A stretch of DNA of 59,178 nucleotides from an uncultured Bacteroidia bacterium (lineage in GTDB: Bacteria > Bacteroidota > Bacteroidia > Bacteroidales > UBA932). The translations under genes were made by a program, and so were the position numbers. The stretch spans positions 1-59,178 of the forward strand of contig CACZUR010000017.1 in assembly GCA_902784435.1 (NCBI GenBank), in the 5' to 3' direction. The number at the start of each line of letters is the position of its first letter. Position 1 is the stretch's first letter. The notes under the pieces were generated by a model, which was not told the origin of the DNA, searched no databases, and saw nothing but the letters and a program-made list of their open reading frames with translations. Of this stretch, positions 9,976 to 57,785 are shown in pieces.

Positions 9976-10431
9976 ATGAAGCAGTATACTTTCAAGATCA
10001 ACGGGAAGGAATATCAAGTAGCCATTGGTGAGGCCAGCGGCAAAACGCTCACCGTAAACGTCAACGGCGCCGACTACCAGGTAGAACTGGAGCAGGAGAT
10101 GGCCGGCCGGACACAGACGGCAGGGGCTTCTCCTGCAGTCGCTGATAAGAGGGCCGATGCTCCTTTAGGAGAAGCCCCTGCCGCTACTGAAACTGCCGCT
10201 GCCGCCCCCAAAGGCGCCGGCCTCACCGTCAAGAGTCCCCTGCCCGGCATCATCATCTCCATTGACGTGAAGGAAGGCCAGGCCGTGAAACGCGGGCAGA
10301 AAGTGGCCGTCATCGAGGCCATGAAGATGGAAAATGACATCCTGGCAGAGGCCGACGGCACCGTCACGGCCATCCACGCCGCCAAAGGCGATTCCGTACT
10401 GGAAGGGGCAGACATCGTAACCATCGGCTAA
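9976..10431 (+). CDS. Biotin carboxyl carrier subunit of the decarboxylase
   Basis: Protein of 151 residues with a C-terminal biotinyl domain. The biotin site is EAMKMEN with Lys117. A short N-terminal domain (residues 1-42) leads into an Ala/Pro-rich flexible linker (about 43-82), expected to let biotin swing between carboxyltransferase and membrane subunit. The linker contains a palindromic element (residues 48-70) shared with two unrelated proteins in this window. The stop overlaps the next start as TAATG. Confidence 0.93.
   Translation: MKQYTFKINGKEYQVAIGEASGKTLTVNVNGADYQVELEQEMAGRTQTAGASPAVADKRADAPLGEAPAATETAAAAPKGAGLTVKSPLPGIIISIDVKEGQAVKRGQKVAVIEAMKMENDILAEADGTVTAIHAAKGDSVLEGADIVTIG
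10118..10183 (+). repeat. In-frame palindromic element, copy A
   Basis: Perfect 17-base inverted repeat (10118-10134 with 10167-10183) around a 32-base loop (10135-10166) containing GTCGC and GGCCGATGCTCC. It codes for ASPAVADKRADAPLGEAP in the carrier linker. The loop recurs at three other sites here; the stem sequence does not. Confidence 0.88.
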
Positions 10432-16547: not shown

Positions 16548-17817
16548 ACTCATCCTATCGCTTTGCGCCCTCTGCATGGCAGGATCGGCCCTGGCCCAGC
16601 AGGAACAGGTAAAAACAGGATGGGTGTTCACCCCCCTGCCCAACCTGGGATACTCGACGGATACGGGGGCCACCCTGGGTGTCATGAGCGATATTTTCTA
16701 TTACGGTGACGGCAGCGTATATCCCAACTTCCTACACCATTTAGGCATTGTAACCGGGTATTCCACCAAGGGAGCCTGGTACGTACACGGCTGTTTCGAA
16801 TCGCCCGCCCTGATAGACTGGGCGCGTGTGAACGCCACCTTCACTTACCGGCAGGCCATGGTGAACAACTTCTACGGCTTCAACGGCATAGCCTCTCCCT
16901 ATTTTCCGGAGCTGGACGCCAACCCGGAAACCGCCACGGCCTGGTACACCAACCGGCGGCGGAATCTCAGGATCAGCGCTTCCATCATAGGCCATATCGC
17001 CGGAAACCTCAGCTGGATGGGCGGCCTGGTGTACCGCCATACGCTAATGGATACGTTTCACCTGGACCGGTACGACTCGGACAAGACGCTGTTCATGGAG
17101 TATGCCCGTACGGGCCTGATCCGGAATGACGAGTTCCCGGGCGGTTCTTCCCTGGAGGGCAAAGCGGGGCTCACCTTTGATTCGCGCGATGTAGAACGCA
17201 ACCCGGGGAAAGGCATGTTTGCAGAACTGTACATCCTGTCCAACTTCGACACGGAATACGGAAAATACAACTACGGCCAGCTGGTGGCCCATTTCCGGCA
17301 CTATCTCACGCTGGTTCCCGAACGCGTGGTCTTTGCCTATCACCTGGGCCTCCAGCACCAGGTCTGGGGAGAGATGCCCTATTACAACCTGAACGAACTC
17401 GCCACCACGTTCTATCCCTTCGAGGAGTATGACGGCCTGGGCAGCCGCGTAAGCGTACGGGGCATCCGCTACAACAGGCTGGCGGCCGCAGGCTATGCCT
17501 GGAGCAACTTCGAATTCCGTATCACACCTTTCGCCTTCCATGCCTTCCGTCAGGATTTCAATTTTGTCCTGAATCCTTTTGTGGACCTGGCTGCCATTAC
17601 GCGTACCTACAGGCTGGCAGAGCAGATGGCCGTAATTCCCACGGATCCTTCACGGCCGCTTTACCAGGACAGGAAACTGCCCGTCATGGTAGCGCCCGGG
17701 ATTGGCGCCAAAATCATCATGAACACCAACTTTATGATGTCCATCGACGTAGGACGGGCCTTGGACCCGCAAATCAGCGACTGGACCATCGGCATGGCTT
17801 CTACTTATGTTTTCTAA
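16537..17817 (+). CDS. Omp85/BamA-type outer membrane beta-barrel protein
   Basis: Protein of 426 residues with a signal peptide (MKHKLILSLC to SALAQ) and alternating beta-strand pattern ending in Phe. LTFDSRDVERNPGKG and the GSRVSVRGIRYNR block resemble the bacterial surface antigen (BamA/TamA) barrel with its RGF-type loop motif. No POTRA repeats are present; the barrel follows the signal peptide almost directly. A role in assembly, transport or adhesion cannot be told. Confidence 0.78.
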   Translation: MKHKLILSLCALCMAGSALAQQEQVKTGWVFTPLPNLGYSTDTGATLGVMSDIFYYGDGSVYPNFLHHLGIVTGYSTKGAWYVHGCFESPALIDWARVNATFTYRQAMVNNFYGFNGIASPYFPELDANPETATAWYTNRRRNLRISASIIGHIAGNLSWMGGLVYRHTLMDTFHLDRYDSDKTLFMEYARTGLIRNDEFPGGSSLEGKAGLTFDSRDVERNPGKGMFAELYILSNFDTEYGKYNYGQLVAHFRHYLTLVPERVVFAYHLGLQHQVWGEMPYYNLNELATTFYPFEEYDGLGSRVSVRGIRYNRLAAAGYAWSNFEFRITPFAFHAFRQDFNFVLNPFVDLAAITRTYRLAEQMAVIPTDPSRPLYQDRKLPVMVAPGIGAKIIMNTNFMMSIDVGRALDPQISDWTIGMASTYVF

Positions 17818-19156
17818 AAACTTACTCCCCTTCCTTGCGGCCGTCCTGCTGCTGGCATCGGCCTGCACGCAGGCTCCGGACCGGCAGACCGGCATCCGGC
17901 GCTCCACCCCCGAGGAGCAGGGCATGAGCAGCGCCCGCCTGGCGCTCATCGACAGCACCGTGAACGCTTCCATCGCCGACGGCACCATTCCCGGCGCCGT
18001 GGTGGGCATCGTCCGCAACGGTTTCCTGGTGTACGGGAAGGCCTACGGCAACAGGGCCCTGGTCCCTCAGAAAGAGCCCATGACGGTGGAAACCCTCTTC
18101 GACCTGGCTTCCGTATCCAAATGCGTAAGCACCACCATCGCCGTCATGCAGCTGGTGGAGCAGGGCAAGTTGCGCCTGACAGACCCCGTGAGCCGGTACA
18201 TCCCGGAGTTTCTGCCCTGGCAGGACCCCAAGACGCGCCGCAAAAAGGCCATCACCATCCAGGACCTGCTCACGCACGCCTCCGGCCTGGACGCCTTCCT
18301 GACGGATGTCCCCGCCTATGTGCAGCGCTTCGGCGCCGGCACCCCCTACAGTCTCCTGTATTACATTTCCACGGAGGCCGGCCGCCATTTCGAACCGGGC
18401 ACGGACCAGCTGTACAGCTGTTTCAACTTCATCGTCCTGCAGCATATCGTGGAACGCATCACCGGCGAACGCCTGTGCGACTACGCCCAGCGGCACATCT
18501 TCGACGTCCTGGGGCTTACGCACACCTGCTACTTCCCCCTGGAATTACAGACAGTGGATAAGCATGCGGAAGAGGATACTCCTGCGGTCGCTAAAGAGAA
18601 GGCCGATGCTCCCTTAGGAGTATCCTCTTCTGCTACTACTGTTGCGAATGCAGGCCGCTTGGAGGAACTCGTTGCTCTGTGTGCCCCTACGGAGCAGCTG
18701 GAGGACGGGACGGTGCTGCGGGGGCAGGTGCACGACCCCACCGCCCGGATCGTGAATCTGGGGAATTCGGGCAATGCCGGGGTGTTCTCCAACGTGGAGG
18801 ACCTGGCCGTGATCTGCGCGGCACTGCTGGACGGCGGCAGCTACGACGGGAAACGCATCCTGAGTCCGCTGAGCGTAGAGAAAATGTTCACCGTGCCGGC
18901 CGGGAACGACCCCAAGGTGGCGCGTGCGCTGGGCTGGGACACCTATTATCGGGAACCGTATACCAGCGGGGATATCTTCCCCCTGGAAAAACTCCGCGGG
19001 CACACCGGGTATACCGGCACTTCGGTGCTGCTGGACCCGCTCACCCGGACGGCCGTCATCATCCTGTCTAACCGCGTGCATCCCCGTGACAAAGGCTCCG
19101 TGGGCCGCCTGCGGGGCACGGTGGCGTCCATTGCGGCGAGTGCGATCGGAGGGTAA
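17807..19156 (+). CDS. Serine hydrolase, beta-lactamase/class C family lipoprotein
   Basis: Penicillin-binding-protein-like serine hydrolase of 449 residues. A lipobox (LLASAC, Cys20) indicates a lipoprotein. The SxxK catalytic pair is Ser102-Lys105 (SVSK), and GHTGYTG near the C-terminus fits the third (HTG) motif. The second motif reads YSC where YxN is usual. A palindromic element (residues 254-276) is inserted between the second and third motifs, in a region that is often a loop. It overlaps the barrel gene by 11 bases. Substrate could be a peptide, an ester or a D-amino-acid compound. Confidence 0.85.
   Translation: MFSKNLLPFLAAVLLLASACTQAPDRQTGIRRSTPEEQGMSSARLALIDSTVNASIADGTIPGAVVGIVRNGFLVYGKAYGNRALVPQKEPMTVETLFDLASVSKCVSTTIAVMQLVEQGKLRLTDPVSRYIPEFLPWQDPKTRRKKAITIQDLLTHASGLDAFLTDVPAYVQRFGAGTPYSLLYYISTEAGRHFEPGTDQLYSCFNFIVLQHIVERITGERLCDYAQRHIFDVLGLTHTCYFPLELQTVDKHAEEDTPAVAKEKADAPLGVSSSATTVANAGRLEELVALCAPTEQLEDGTVLRGQVHDPTARIVNLGNSGNAGVFSNVEDLAVICAALLDGGSYDGKRILSPLSVEKMFTVPAGNDPKVARALGWDTYYREPYTSGDIFPLEKLRGHTGYTGTSVLLDPLTRTAVIILSNRVHPRDKGSVGRLRGTVASIAASAIGG
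18566..18633 (+). repeat. In-frame palindromic element, copy B
   Basis: Inverted repeat of 18 bases with one mismatch (perfect for 15: 18569-18583 with 18616-18630) around a 32-base loop (18584-18615) closely matching that of copy A. It encodes DTPAVAKEKADAPLGV in the serine hydrolase. Its stem is unrelated to the stem of copy A beyond the innermost bases. Confidence 0.88.
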
Positions 19157-35214: not shown

Positions 35215-35250
35215 CAAAATAAGGCTCGCATCCCTGCGAGCCTTATTTTG
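35215..35250 (+). terminator. Intrinsic terminator of trmD
   Basis: Perfect 16-bp inverted repeat, CAAAATAAGGCTCGCA with its complement around a TCCC loop. The A- and T-rich ends make it usable in both directions, so it could also stop the TonB receptor transcript from the other side. Confidence 0.88.
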
Positions 35251-45973: not shown

Positions 45974-47014
45974 TCACTGCTGCGGCAAAGGCGCTATCCG
46001 GCAACGCCCAAGCCCCTGCGCGTGCTCCCCGGAGAGCACCCCCGCCCGGCTCAGCCCCTCCACCGTACAGTCCTCCGGAGCATGATGCTCCCGGTACAGG
46101 ACAATACCATGCGCCTCGGCCCGGGAAATGTGCGGATGCCGCGCCAGCTGCTCCTCCGGCAGCGTCCACAAAGGAAACGGCTCCGGCTCCGAGCACACGA
46201 TCAGGTCCTGCAGTCCGTCGTACTTTTCCTTGTCGAAATGATAGATTTCCAGGAGCTGCTCCTTGCAGGAATAGCCCCCCAGCAGAGTCCGGTACTGCAC
46301 CACCTTCCCCGCGAAATACGGTCCGATGCCCGGAAGGTCCAGCAGCGCCACGCTATCCGCCCGGTTGATGTCCAGCCGCGGGATGTCGATGTATGGCGCC
46401 AGCCGCTCGAAAACCGAATCCGCCACCACATAGCTCTTGGCAAAGTCTCCGGGCCGCCGGAAGCGTCCCCCCTTCTGCCGATAATGGTCGATGGCCTGCG
46501 CCTGCCGCTCCGAGAAACCCAGCCGCCGCAGATCCTCCACCGGCACTGTATTGGGATTGAAACGGAAACTTTCCACCCGCCGGGGCGCCGCCTTCTCCCG
46601 CACCTCCGCCGCCTCCTTCCCATGTCCCGCTCCCCGCCGCAAGACAACAGGCACATCGGCAGGTGATAAACCTTGAGGAGCATCGGCCTTCTTCTTTGCG
46701 ACGAAAGGTTTATCACCTGCCATCCTACTGCCAAAGGAAGCATCGGCAGACCGTGACCCCTGAGGAGCATCGGCCCTCTCATTTGCGACGAAGGGGTCAT
46801 GGTCTGCCATATCTTCCGCCAAAAGGCGTTTTGCCAAGGCAGGGTCGATGACATAGACGGTGTCCGGGCTGTCGCGGTTGGCCACCAGGCGGGTGATGGC
46901 GGCTTTGTGGATGAAAAGGGCCACCTGGTATCCCAAAATGAGGAAAACCAGGGCGATGGCTCCGGTGACGAAGCTGGCGGTGAGGGGACTATTCTTTTTC
47001 TTCGCGGGGTCCAT
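45974..47014 (-). CDS. Helix-hairpin-helix (ComEA-like) membrane protein
   Basis: Protein of 346 residues with one N-terminal membrane helix (about 13-36), then a linker and two or three HhH units (FNPNTVPVEDLRRLGFS; DINRADSVALLDLPGIG). It resembles Bacteroidota ComEA-related DNA-binding proteins; a role in DNA uptake is not shown. The linker holds two palindromic elements (residues 69-90 and 98-119) giving the repeated peptide DPFVANERADAPQG / KPFVAKKKADAPQG. Its 5' end overlaps the rsmI 3' end. Confidence 0.8.
   Translation of the reverse strand: MDPAKKKNSPLTASFVTGAIALVFLILGYQVALFIHKAAITRLVANRDSPDTVYVIDPALAKRLLAEDMADHDPFVANERADAPQGSRSADASFGSRMAGDKPFVAKKKADAPQGLSPADVPVVLRRGAGHGKEAAEVREKAAPRRVESFRFNPNTVPVEDLRRLGFSERQAQAIDHYRQKGGRFRRPGDFAKSYVVADSVFERLAPYIDIPRLDINRADSVALLDLPGIGPYFAGKVVQYRTLLGGYSCKEQLLEIYHFDKEKYDGLQDLIVCSEPEPFPLWTLPEEQLARHPHISRAEAHGIVLYREHHAPEDCTVEGLSRAGVLSGEHAQGLGRCRIAPLPQQ
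46658..46721 (-). repeat. In-frame palindromic element, copy C
   Basis: Perfect 17-base stem (46658-46674 with 46705-46721) around the conserved loop. Read on the minus strand the loop has GTCGC, AAGAAGG and CCGATGCTCC as in copies A and B. Confidence 0.88.
46745..46808 (-). repeat. In-frame palindromic element, copy D
   Basis: Stem of 17 bases with one mismatch (46745-46761 with 46792-46808). Its loop is nearly identical to that of copy C, 23 bases away, but the stem sequence differs apart from the outer GGCAG and inner CCT. Confidence 0.88.
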
Positions 47015-52630: not shown

Positions 52631-52729
52631 TTGTTCAGTGCTCCTAATGTCCCAAAATTGGGGACGATAGGAGCATTTTACCCCTCTTTTCGCTCCCAAT
52701 GTCCCATAAATTGGGACGATAGGAGCACC
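52631..52729. repeat. 99-bp repeat, copy 1
   Basis: Identical over 99 bases to 57687-57785. It contains two imperfect hairpins about 52 bases apart, each of the form GCTCC(T/C)-AATGTCCCA, AATTGGGACGATAGGAGC. It abuts a truncated permease start. The 297-base gap 52605-52901 is filled by this repeat, the remnant and the 51-bp tandem palindromes. Confidence 0.95.
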
Positions 52730-55236: not shown

Positions 55237-57675
55237 CTACTCGTTCTTTAACGATTCCACCGGATTGGCCCGGGCAATCTTCAGGCAGTTCAGCACCACC
55301 ACGCCCAGCACAATCAGCAGCACCAGGACGGCTCCGCCGATGAAATACAGCGGATTCAGCGAGACTTTCTCGGCAAACTGCTCCAGCCACTTGTGGGCTA
55401 CAAAGTAGGCGGCCACGCAGGCAATCACAGCCATTACGGCGGACAGTTTCATAATGTCGGTGGCAAACACACCAAGGATGTCGCGGGTTGTAGCGCCATT
55501 GATTTTCCTCACTGCCATTTCCTTGCTGCGGCGCAGGCTTTCATCCTTGATGAAGCCGATGAGGCCCAGAAGGGCGATCAGTAGTGAGAAAACTGCCCCC
55601 AGCGCCATGGTGTTGCGCATCTTCTTGCTGTCGGCATAGGCGGCACGCATCTGCTCCTCGTAGGACAGGATGTTGATTTCACGCCCTTCCAGTGCCCTTT
55701 CCAAGGCTTCACGCACTTTGTCCAGAGATGGCCGATCAAGTCGGCCATGACGCCCACCGTCATTCCCGGCCTGACCGGGAATCTTGAACAGCACATGTGG
55801 CATCCAGGAACTCATCGAGCCAATTTCGCCATAGAACAGTGCGCTGGGGCGCGGATCCACGCCGGTCAGGTTTCCGATGAGATAGCTTTTGTACACACCC
55901 GAAATGGTGAAATAACTCCGATCCGAATCGCGTGAGCGGTCGTGACCGGTAATGAACACTTGCTTGCCCACGGCGCCGTCGCTCCAGTCTGTAAACTCGG
56001 CCATCTTGTCCACAAACTTTTCATCCACAGCGATTTCTGAGGAATCCCGGGGCGCACGACCCTCCAGGAACTCAATGCCCATCAGGTCATAGAAATTGCT
56101 CGAGCACTCATATTGATCGGCAATATTGAAAAGTTCCCGGTCATCGTCCGGCAGATAGACATTATCCCCGCTGGAGCCCTGGAAAGGAAGGTTGTAGCTG
56201 GCTGCAACGCCGCTTACGTCTGGAAGGCTGCGAAGGGTTTCGGCTGCGCGTACGAGCGCCTGGCGGTCGCCGTCGAACATGTCAAAGTAGTACAGATTCT
56301 TGTAGTCGTAACCCGTATCGGCATGGGATACTTTCTGGTATTGCCGGCCGATGATAAGCATCATCACCACCAGAAACACGTTGATAAGCACCTGGATGCC
56401 CAGAAGCCCCAGCTTCCAGTTTCGGGAGTTCTCGGTATAGTTTTTCAGGGCAGCATACACCGGGATCCGCTGATAAAGCTCTGCCGGGACTACAATGGAG
56501 ATGATGAGCACGAACACCAGCACCGCGACGATTGCAAGGATGCTCTGCGGCACCAGCAGCGTCTGGAACGGCACGCCCAGCAGGTTCTCCACGATGCTTC
56601 GGCCTGCGAAGATGATGACCCCAGCCAGCGCCAGAGAGAGCAGGATATGCAGCAGCGCTTCCTTCGTCAGCATTCCATAAATGTGCTTACCCTCAGCGCC
56701 GTAGCACTTGCGAACGCCCACTTCCTTGGAACGCTTCACCAGGGAGGAAATCACAATGAGGATGTAGTTCAGCAGGGAAATCAGGATGAGCAGCGCTGCC
56801 ACGATGGAGAGCAGAATCACCGTCTGGCGAACTTCTGGGGCCGATGTATGCATCGTGCTGAAGGGCTTCAGGAAATAACGGAAGGTATTACCCTGGGCCT
56901 CTATCTGCTCCAGCGGCTGGTGGGATTCCTGCATCTTCCGGATGCCATCGGTCAGGGTATTCGGGTCCACGCCCGGCATCAGTTTTACATAGCCCTTGTA
57001 CCGGTCGTTGCCATTCCAGTTATCGGTGCTCTGCTTGCCGTAGGTCTCCATTGACAGCAAAATGTCATAGTCCAGGCTGCCATTTTTCGGGAAGTCCTCA
57101 AACACGCCCTCGATGGGCAGTTTCAGCCCCGGCATGTCCTCATTGTAAATCTGCCTGCCGATGACGGAGGACAGACCCCCGATCTGGTCGGGGGTGACGT
57201 TTTTGTCGTCATGCCCGGCTTGACCGGGCATCTCTTTGGCAATCTTCTCCGCAAAGCTCCGGCTCACCATCACACCTCCCCATTTTCCAAGGATTTTCAC
57301 GGGGTTACCAGCCAGAATCGGCCGGTCGAACACCTGGAAGAAACAGGTATCGGCACAGACCAGCGTAGCCTTCAGCTTGTTACCGTCCTCGTCCAGATAA
57401 GTGTCGCCATTGAATACATACGTGGTACGCGTGCCACATTCAACGCCCGGCACCTCTTCCATGAAGCCCACGGCCACGGCGCCGCTCACCTGGCCATAGT
57501 CCTTCTCATTCCCTTGCATGGAAATCCAGGTGTTGATGGTGTATACCCGGTCGATGTCCTTGTAGAAGCTGTCGTAACTCAGCTCAAAGAACACCTTGGC
57601 AATGAGCACAATGCCCACGGCCAACCCGATGCCCAGGGAGAGGACCTTGATTAGAATATCGTTTTTTGTTTTCAC
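55237..57675 (-). CDS. ABC transporter permease (MacB/FtsX type) with palindrome insertions
   Basis: Paralogous permease of 812 residues with the same two-unit layout and the FtsX motif RRSKEMAVRKINGA near the end. Two GC-rich palindromes are embedded in the periplasmic domains and encode MPGQAGHD (about 149-156) and IPGQAGND (about 632-639). Both are in the same frame and appear tolerated loop insertions. It follows the ATPase gene on the minus strand, separated by the second 99-bp repeat. Confidence 0.9.
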   Translation of the reverse strand: MKTKNDILIKVLSLGIGLAVGIVLIAKVFFELSYDSFYKDIDRVYTINTWISMQGNEKDYGQVSGAVAVGFMEEVPGVECGTRTTYVFNGDTYLDEDGNKLKATLVCADTCFFQVFDRPILAGNPVKILGKWGGVMVSRSFAEKIAKEMPGQAGHDDKNVTPDQIGGLSSVIGRQIYNEDMPGLKLPIEGVFEDFPKNGSLDYDILLSMETYGKQSTDNWNGNDRYKGYVKLMPGVDPNTLTDGIRKMQESHQPLEQIEAQGNTFRYFLKPFSTMHTSAPEVRQTVILLSIVAALLILISLLNYILIVISSLVKRSKEVGVRKCYGAEGKHIYGMLTKEALLHILLSLALAGVIIFAGRSIVENLLGVPFQTLLVPQSILAIVAVLVFVLIISIVVPAELYQRIPVYAALKNYTENSRNWKLGLLGIQVLINVFLVVMMLIIGRQYQKVSHADTGYDYKNLYYFDMFDGDRQALVRAAETLRSLPDVSGVAASYNLPFQGSSGDNVYLPDDDRELFNIADQYECSSNFYDLMGIEFLEGRAPRDSSEIAVDEKFVDKMAEFTDWSDGAVGKQVFITGHDRSRDSDRSYFTISGVYKSYLIGNLTGVDPRPSALFYGEIGSMSSWMPHVLFKIPGQAGNDGGRHGRLDRPSLDKVREALERALEGREINILSYEEQMRAAYADSKKMRNTMALGAVFSLLIALLGLIGFIKDESLRRSKEMAVRKINGATTRDILGVFATDIMKLSAVMAVIACVAAYFVAHKWLEQFAEKVSLNPLYFIGGAVLVLLIVLGVVVLNCLKIARANPVESLKNE
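55759..55785 (-). repeat. PGQAG-encoding palindrome, copy 1
   Basis: ATTCCCGG, CCTGA, CCGGGAAT (55762-55782) within the permease gene; encodes IPGQAGND on the minus strand. It is of the widespread GTCATTCCCGG-type dispersed repeat. Confidence 0.8.
57208..57234 (-). repeat. PGQAG-encoding palindrome, copy 2
   Basis: ATGCCCGG, CTTGA, CCGGGCAT (57211-57231) in the same permease gene; encodes MPGQAGHD in the same frame as copy 1. The stems differ by a compensated base pair (T/A versus G/C). Confidence 0.8.
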
Positions 57676-57686
57676 TATACTGAATC

Positions 57687-57785
57687 TTGTTCAGTGCTCC
57701 TAATGTCCCAAAATTGGGGACGATAGGAGCATTTTACCCCTCTTTTCGCTCCCAATGTCCCATAAATTGGGACGATAGGAGCACC
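57687..57785. repeat. 99-bp repeat, copy 2
   Basis: Identical to 52631-52729, same orientation, 5056 bases apart. It lies between the ATPase and the permease and supplies the last 28 or so codons and the stop of the ATPase frame. Confidence 0.95.

What the first reader, a model, noticed from the sequence alone, without database searches (positions are those of the whole stretch)
46658..46808. In-frame palindromic elements with a conserved loop but copy-specific stems (two copies side by side)
Seen: two elements (46658-46721, 46745-46808) in the HHH protein, plus 10118-10183 and 18566-18633 in unrelated proteins, share a 32-base loop (GTCGC...GGCCGATGCTCC), while the 15-18-base stems differ between copies yet pair within each copy. 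All four are read in the same frame: P-x-V-A-x3-A-D-A-P-[LQ]-G. Known: Rickettsia palindromic elements insert in genes in one frame, but there the palindrome itself is conserved. Inference: one 16-base stem strand plus the 32-base loop is 48 bases, exactly 16 codons, as if insertion copies adjacent target DNA in inverted orientation. This could be a new class of protein-coding mobile or DNA-repair-derived element.
Basis: partly seen in the sequence, partly recalled or inferred. Interest (0 to 1): 0.88.

Follow-up and report, generated by a model that had tools for sequence, protein, structure and literature searches.

The report
In-frame hairpins, shared core, private stems
Some Bacteroidales bacteria carry tiny hairpin-forming DNA inserts inside working genes that share one centre, while the two sides of each stem are peculiar to that copy yet match each other, apparently because one side is copied from the other; it is a natural record of a DNA-copying process.

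Summary
Observation confirmed. The window holds four 66-nt in-frame elements (family A): a conserved 26-nt core between ~17-bp arms that pair within a copy but differ between copies. The genome has 25 exact cores; 27 more stretches lie in other Bacteroidales MAGs. A second family with the same anatomy (B; 78 nt, ~20-bp arms) matched in 11 of 101 genomes searched, often in the same linkers of the same genes. Copies with identical cores have largely unrelated arms. In orthologous copies arms change in matched pairs (13 coupled, 26 single changes), the core is reversed at 3 of 16 sites, and it hardly mutates (2 of 684 sites). Some losses leave one arm. Arm homogenisation and spacer inversion are published signatures of template switching between inverted repeats. 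Best reading: REP/RPE-like in-frame elements whose stems are kept matched by templated copying. The mobiliser and the reason for core constancy are unknown.

The parts
46657..46722 (-). Family-A element in the HHH protein (66-nt unit; core 46677-46702)
   Evidence: exact core, 17-bp perfect arms
46744..46809 (-). Second family-A element in the same HHH protein (core 46764-46789)
   Evidence: exact core, arms with one mismatch
10118..10183 (+). Family-A element in a biotin/lipoyl carrier protein (core 10138-10163)
   Evidence: exact core, 17-bp perfect arms
18566..18633 (+). Family-A element in a Beta-lactamase-family (PF00144) protein (core 18587-18612)
   Evidence: exact core, 18-nt arms 94% complementary
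45974..47014 (-). Host gene of two copies: 346-aa protein with PF12836 HHH_3
9976..10431 (+). Host gene: 151-aa protein with PF00364 Biotin_lipoyl
17807..19156 (+). Host gene: 449-aa protein with PF00144 Beta-lactamase (a broad family; function not tested)

Best explanation
Families A and B are short in-frame hairpin insertion elements of Bacteroidales, like REPs and Rickettsia palindromic elements in lifestyle. A conserved core (the loop) defines the family; units of about 66 or 78 nt sit in protein linkers in either orientation. SHOWN: copy-specific but paired arms; largely unrelated arms between copies with identical cores; coupled arm changes in orthologues; inversion of the core between otherwise matching arms; a near-invariant core; alleles with one arm and no core. 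INFERRED: arms stay complementary because replication template switching copies one arm from the other, and can carry the pairing a few bases into host DNA; single arms and other short palindromes in the same linkers may be re-occupied. UNKNOWN: what spreads the core, and why it hardly changes (concerted rewriting, or selection on the DNA).
For: [quoted passage not shown] independence at the one-sided rate would give about 0.4 (the 18 comparisons include trios and were chosen by me as the same insertion because the arms align). One comparison (L295/L302) has five adjacent coupled pairs; 4 of 13 coupled changes are transversions, which a G-U intermediate cannot give, and single changes are 20 mismatches to 6 wobbles, so no sign of selection for wobble intermediates. 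Core reversed between the same arms at 3 of 16 sites (S5, S7, S16). Core 2 differences in 684 sites. Pairing runs on beyond arm position 20 for at least 3 bases in 13 of 61 B copies against 3.1% of re-paired controls. Core-less alleles with one arm: S9 G183, S14 G207, S15 G207 and G317. Arm homogenisation plus spacer inversion are described as outcomes of template switching in coding DNA (PMC8604942: abstract and its section on spacer inversion read; PMC8794818: abstract and outline read).
Against: Published spacer inversions are of 2-5 bp spacers, these are 26-38 nt. Three orthologous sites at high flank identity carry wholly different stems (L239/L254, L123/L250, L253/L247), which gradual homogenisation does not explain. 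Template switching alone explains neither spread nor the constant core. Arms of copies with identical cores are unrelated, which suits either old copies or new arms at each insertion. I did no explicit reconstruction of the switch points.
Confidence: 0.55

Rival explanations
1. Target copying at insertion: the mobile part is the core; it enters next to a host sequence, often a short palindrome or a leftover arm, and the adjacent DNA is copied in inverted orientation to make the second arm.
For: S10 (DnaX-like linker): G183, G264, G288 and G125 unoccupied with the left arm, G179 occupied and, in the IleRS tree (no support values), sister of G288, so a gain is simpler than four losses. S19: a 78-nt insertion ending in a 7-nt reverse complement of the host flank; a second placement is only two matches worse of 86 and also puts host sequence in one arm. 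IleRS L177 against L185. IleRS L182 against L204 and L200. Arms are self-complementary beyond column composition: B mean 4.23 against 3.70, A 3.50 against 3.14, 0 of 300 permutations each (related copies are included, so this is inflated). Identical cores with unrelated arms.
Against: 31 of 41 occupied alleles (30 of 39 distinct) show no arm in any unoccupied orthologue. Insertions of the full 78 nt at S8 and S19. By eye neither arm at S3, S8, S12 or S20. S4 looked host-like by eye (13 of 17) but was not significant (p=0.256). The IleRS L182 arm resembles the family-B consensus, so G288 and G183 may be relics.
Confidence: 0.22
2. A functional hairpin: each copy is kept by selection because the folded RNA or DNA does something (for instance binds a protein), so the core is conserved and stems change by compensation.
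For: Conserved core with covarying stem is the usual mark of structured nucleic acids; core 2 of 684 changes while arms and flanks change.
Against: The core is found in both orientations to the host gene and is reversed between orthologues, so RNA function would be antisense in many copies; losses occur in essential-type genes (IleRS); single changes do not favour wobbles; no Rfam family above its gathering score apart from a nearby tRNA in 11 loci searched.
Confidence: 0.13
3. Ordinary whole-unit transposition of a REP/MITE-like hairpin, arms included, by a transposase in trans; stems then diverge with age.
For: Fixed unit length; 78-nt insertions; inner arms have a consensus; Y1_Tnp genes in 14 of 15 genomes searched; in G000 one non-tandem pair of copies shares 16 of 17 arm bases (identified by eye as L004 and L009).
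Against: Arms at different sites are no more alike than column-permuted arms in B (largest non-orthologous match 18 of 20, once); Tb.RUG.143 has 14 copies with one core sequence and mean arm identity 0.51, largest 0.82. No complete A or B core in the Y1-gene stretches fetched (30 distinct of the 51 places listed); Y1 genes occur as often in genomes without B, and B-bearing G139 had no match.
Confidence: 0.1

Closest known systems
Rickettsia palindromic elements (RPE), protein-coding palindromes
   Same: Short palindromic repeats inserted in frame in many unrelated protein genes, apparently tolerated.
   Different: From recall RPEs share the palindrome itself; a passage in PMC6649704 says they lose repeat identity over time. 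Here the loop is shared and the stems are private and stay paired.
GTAG/CGTC REPs and RAYT transposases (PMC3733652: passages and two sections read)
   Same: Short dispersed hairpins, some inside genes, some lying within target palindromes; CGTC REPs are reported from Bacteroidetes and as lacking a dedicated transposase.
   Different: REPs have a GTAG or CGTC tag, family-specific stems of 5-13 bp and mostly short loops; here there is no such terminal tag, stems are about 17-20 bp and copy-specific, the conserved part is a 26-38 nt loop. CGTC-REP-like palindromes occur separately in the same linkers.
Template switching between inverted-repeat arms in coding DNA (PMC8604942, PMC8794818)
   Same: Arm homogenisation, spacer inversion, multi-base coupled changes.
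   Different: Described as a mutation process at single inverted repeats with 2-5 bp inverted spacers, not for a dispersed family with a conserved 26-38 nt spacer.
Coding palindromes of nematomorph mitochondria (PMC6649704, abstract and passages read)
   Same: Perfect inverted repeats within protein genes, kept matched, gained and lost between species.
   Different: Up to 284 bp and without a conserved central core as far as the passages seen tell.

Membership tests
Rickettsia palindromic element | in-frame insertion in protein genes | tested here: met
   A: 46 of 52 copies by longest frame, other 6 by eye; B: 65 of 85 by longest frame, 13 more by eye
Rickettsia palindromic element | the palindrome (stem) sequence is the conserved family mark (recalled) | tested here: not met
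   stems copy-specific, loop conserved
REP (GTAG/CGTC) | terminal GTAG or CGTC tag next to a family-specific short stem | tested here: not met
   against the description in PMC3733652; B holds CGTC inside its loop, not at the end of the hairpin
REP (GTAG/CGTC) | association with a RAYT/Y1 transposase gene (GTAG class) | tested here: not met
   no complete core in 30 distinct fetched stretches of 51 places
MITE | terminal inverted repeats of a parent transposon and target-site duplication | tested here: inconclusive
   no parent searched beyond Y1 genes; no direct target duplication recognised at S8 or S19
Template-switched inverted repeat | coupled multi-base arm changes | tested here: met
Template-switched inverted repeat | spacer inversion between unchanged or matching arms | tested here: met
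   S5, S7, S16
Template-switched inverted repeat | rate change in nuclease or polymerase mutants | not testable with these tools
   needs experiments

The most novel reading that the evidence does not exclude
A new class of mobile DNA: a tiny core without fixed ends of its own that enters short palindromes or leftover single arms in gene linkers and at each entry builds its second arm as an inverted copy of the first. Cores of different families (A, A2, B) swap in and out of the same linkers across a genus, can re-enter reversed, and are rewritten in concert, while each site keeps its own private stem.
Probability: 0.22. Interest if true: 0.92.

Novelty: new variant of a known kind. Interest (0 to 1): 0.72.

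Why it matters
The families are a natural experiment: in one genome up to 25 hairpins with a shared centre and free stems, with orthologous series of occupied, reversed, lost and replaced alleles. They would let rates of arm homogenisation, spacer inversion and palindrome loss be measured in bacteria, and show how proteins such as IleRS, CysRS and a Mur ligase tolerate and exchange 22-26 residue inserts. If copying at insertion holds, it is a new way for DNA to move.

Tried and rejected
CysRS as empty-site test: the unoccupied linkers have similar length but other sequence, so no clean empty site; this search revealed family B. IleRS L182 against L204/L200 first looked decisive for target copying; downgraded because the arm resembles the B consensus and the break lies at a short direct repeat. 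Rfam at E<=1 on 11 loci: one tRNA above its gathering score, otherwise microRNA models below theirs. Y1 transposase link: negative within the stretches fetched. Viral contigs: no exact match to either core pattern. Scan for long near-perfect hairpins in the loci then held: 29, of which I count 24 as A or B. Window mini-hairpins: 8 against 2-5 in five shuffles. Literature searches: no listed title or abstract described these families; many subscription papers are not held, so this is not proof of absence.

Limits. One search tests many pairs and its p<=0.02 flags include chance; it counts two alleles twice; its pattern missed the A2 alleles, one of which served as 'unoccupied' in a marginal row. 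One search leaves out three orthologous sites with wholly different stems (reported apart: 28 both-sided, 26 same, 5 one-sided, 1 other) and more distant members of the 19 clusters; its flank counts are meaningless where flanks hold indels. Core inversions were noticed by eye. fixes 19 of 26 core positions. One search tried five insertion lengths only. Gene names other than those are mine by eye.

Full report
What is there. Each is taken as 66 nt: 17-nt arm, 3 nt, a 26-nt core GTCGCWRANRARRRGGCCGATGCTCC, 3 nt, 17-nt arm. They lie in a helix-hairpin-helix protein (two copies), a biotin/lipoyl carrier protein and a Beta-lactamase-family protein. The genome has 25 exact cores. A scan of a public genome collection found 27 more stretches, all in records titled Bacteroidales, 14 in Tb.RUG.143, 9 in RGIG7856 and one each in four others. 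In the genus sample (61 genomes) only the window's own genome had zero-mismatch matches; G028 had two one-mismatch copies with paired arms.

Coding. Forward copies read P-x-V-A...A-D-A-P, reverse copies G-A-S-A-F. Of 52 copies 37 have their longest frame in the first and 9 in the second; the other 6 have the first frame open for 209-696 codons. Pfam supports IleRS-type, CysRS, Mur ligase and DHH hosts; FtsY, UvrD-like, DnaG, LigA and others are named by eye.

A second family. In the CysRS linker of G028 and G037 another core occupies the same place: family B, TCCGC-GTCGCTTCGCGACCCTGTACGGGCAAATG-CTCC. It matched in 11 of 101 genomes (up to 2 mismatches, control 0) and in 8 of 13 chosen ones. 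In 61 copies arm positions 1-20 pair in 51-60 copies each, position 21 in 43, position 22 in 29. By peptide comparison B sits in the same linkers as A in other species for HHH, CysRS, IleRS, Mur ligase, DHH, DnaX-like, alpha-2-macroglobulin-like and biotin carrier genes. Of 85 B copies 65 have one of two frames (one per strand) as the longest; of the other 20, 13 have such a frame with a plausible host peptide, 3 at one host site use a third frame, 3 are unclear and one (L132) has only short frames; L251, counted among the 65, has only 71 codons. A variant A2, TCCGCGAAA...GCCGATGCTAC, lies in IleRS of G147 and G217.

Stems. Identical cores go with unrelated arms: Tb.RUG.143 has 14 copies with one core sequence and mean arm identity 0.51. 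In G000 four copies in two tandem pairs share arms fully and one non-tandem pair shares 16 of 17. In B the largest match between non-orthologous arms is 18 of 20, once, about as expected from column-permuted arms. In orthologous insertions the arms change together: 13 coupled Watson-Crick changes and 24 one-sided in 360 pair positions, core 2 of 684. In the partly different set (16 pairs and 3 reversed-core pairs) there are 13 coupled and 26 single changes; five coupled ones are adjacent in L295/L302. At 3 of 16 sites the core is reversed between the same arms (S5, S7, S16). These are published marks of template switching between inverted-repeat arms (PMC8604942, PMC8794818). Three other orthologous sites have wholly different stems.

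Empty sites. 41 occupied alleles (39 distinct) were compared with unoccupied orthologues (sites). Exact or nearly exact arms appear at S9 (G183), S14 (G207), S15 (G207 left arm, G317 right arm), IleRS (G288, G183) and S10. Except at S10 breaks lie at short direct repeats and I read them as possible losses; for IleRS the tree would equally allow a gain in G179. At S10 four relatives hold the left arm, G222 does not, and only G179 has core and inverted arm; a gain is the simpler reading. At S19 (UDP-glucose-dehydrogenase-like, name recalled) the best join is a 78-nt insertion ending in a 7-nt reverse complement of the host flank, with a second placement two matches worse of 86; one search did not flag this site. 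At S4 the right arm of G288 resembles G264 and G222 by eye, not significantly. By eye neither arm is in the unoccupied gene at S3, S8, S12 and S20.

Reading. That arms are kept matched by templated copying is the best supported part. Copying at insertion is open: it would explain unrelated arms with identical cores, and arms that are themselves self-complementary, but it is not seen at most sites. The core is nearly constant within a lineage: in G179, G288, G183 and G125, 21 of 29 copies carry both changes of the mini-hairpin (GTTGC/GCAAC), the other 8 form a second variant (CTATCC) without them, and none of 45 copies in G019, G317, G139 and G140 has them; single such copies occur in G082 and G095. 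This asks for concerted rewriting, turnover or DNA-level selection; protein-level selection cannot explain it since both orientations are used. No mobiliser was found: Y1 genes are in 14 of 15 genomes, B-bearing or not, and no complete core lies in the 30 distinct stretches fetched of 51 places.

Known or new. It behaves like REPs and Rickettsia palindromic elements but fails tested features of each (conserved stem; terminal tag; transposase link). I file it as a new variant of coding palindromic elements. Searches listed no description of it.

Noticed in passing
window 55728-55782 and 57175-57231 (ORF 55237-57675, minus): Four short perfect hairpins (8-bp stems), several like the CGTC REPs described in PMC3733652 (for example ATTCCCGGCCTGACCGGGAAT), inside an 812-codon open frame; similar palindromes fill the same gene linkers in relatives.
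   Followed up: partly
window 52638-52728 and 57694-57784: The same inverted repeat (37-nt arms, 17 nt apart) occurs twice, near starts of minus-strand open frames.
   Followed up: no
window 35215-35250: Perfect 16-bp hairpin with a 4-nt loop, terminator-like in size.
   Followed up: no
L201, L215 (IleRS) and L420: In G317 and G019 a second palindrome (ACCGGGG...) is nested inside the family-B core, at two different host genes.
   Followed up: no
L009/L010 and L078: Tandem duplication of arm plus core (45 and 51 nt, in frame), so the element also grows as a tandem repeat.
   Followed up: partly
L248, L281 against L353, L354, L355: At site S7 the unoccupied alleles appear, by eye, to read as two overlapping frames with an ATG, while occupied alleles read through as one; the element may have joined two reading frames.
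   Followed up: no
L117 and L132: B-type cores in what look like intergenic, T-run-flanked hairpins with different outer bases (CCCTG...ATGGTCGC), perhaps an older form.
   Followed up: no
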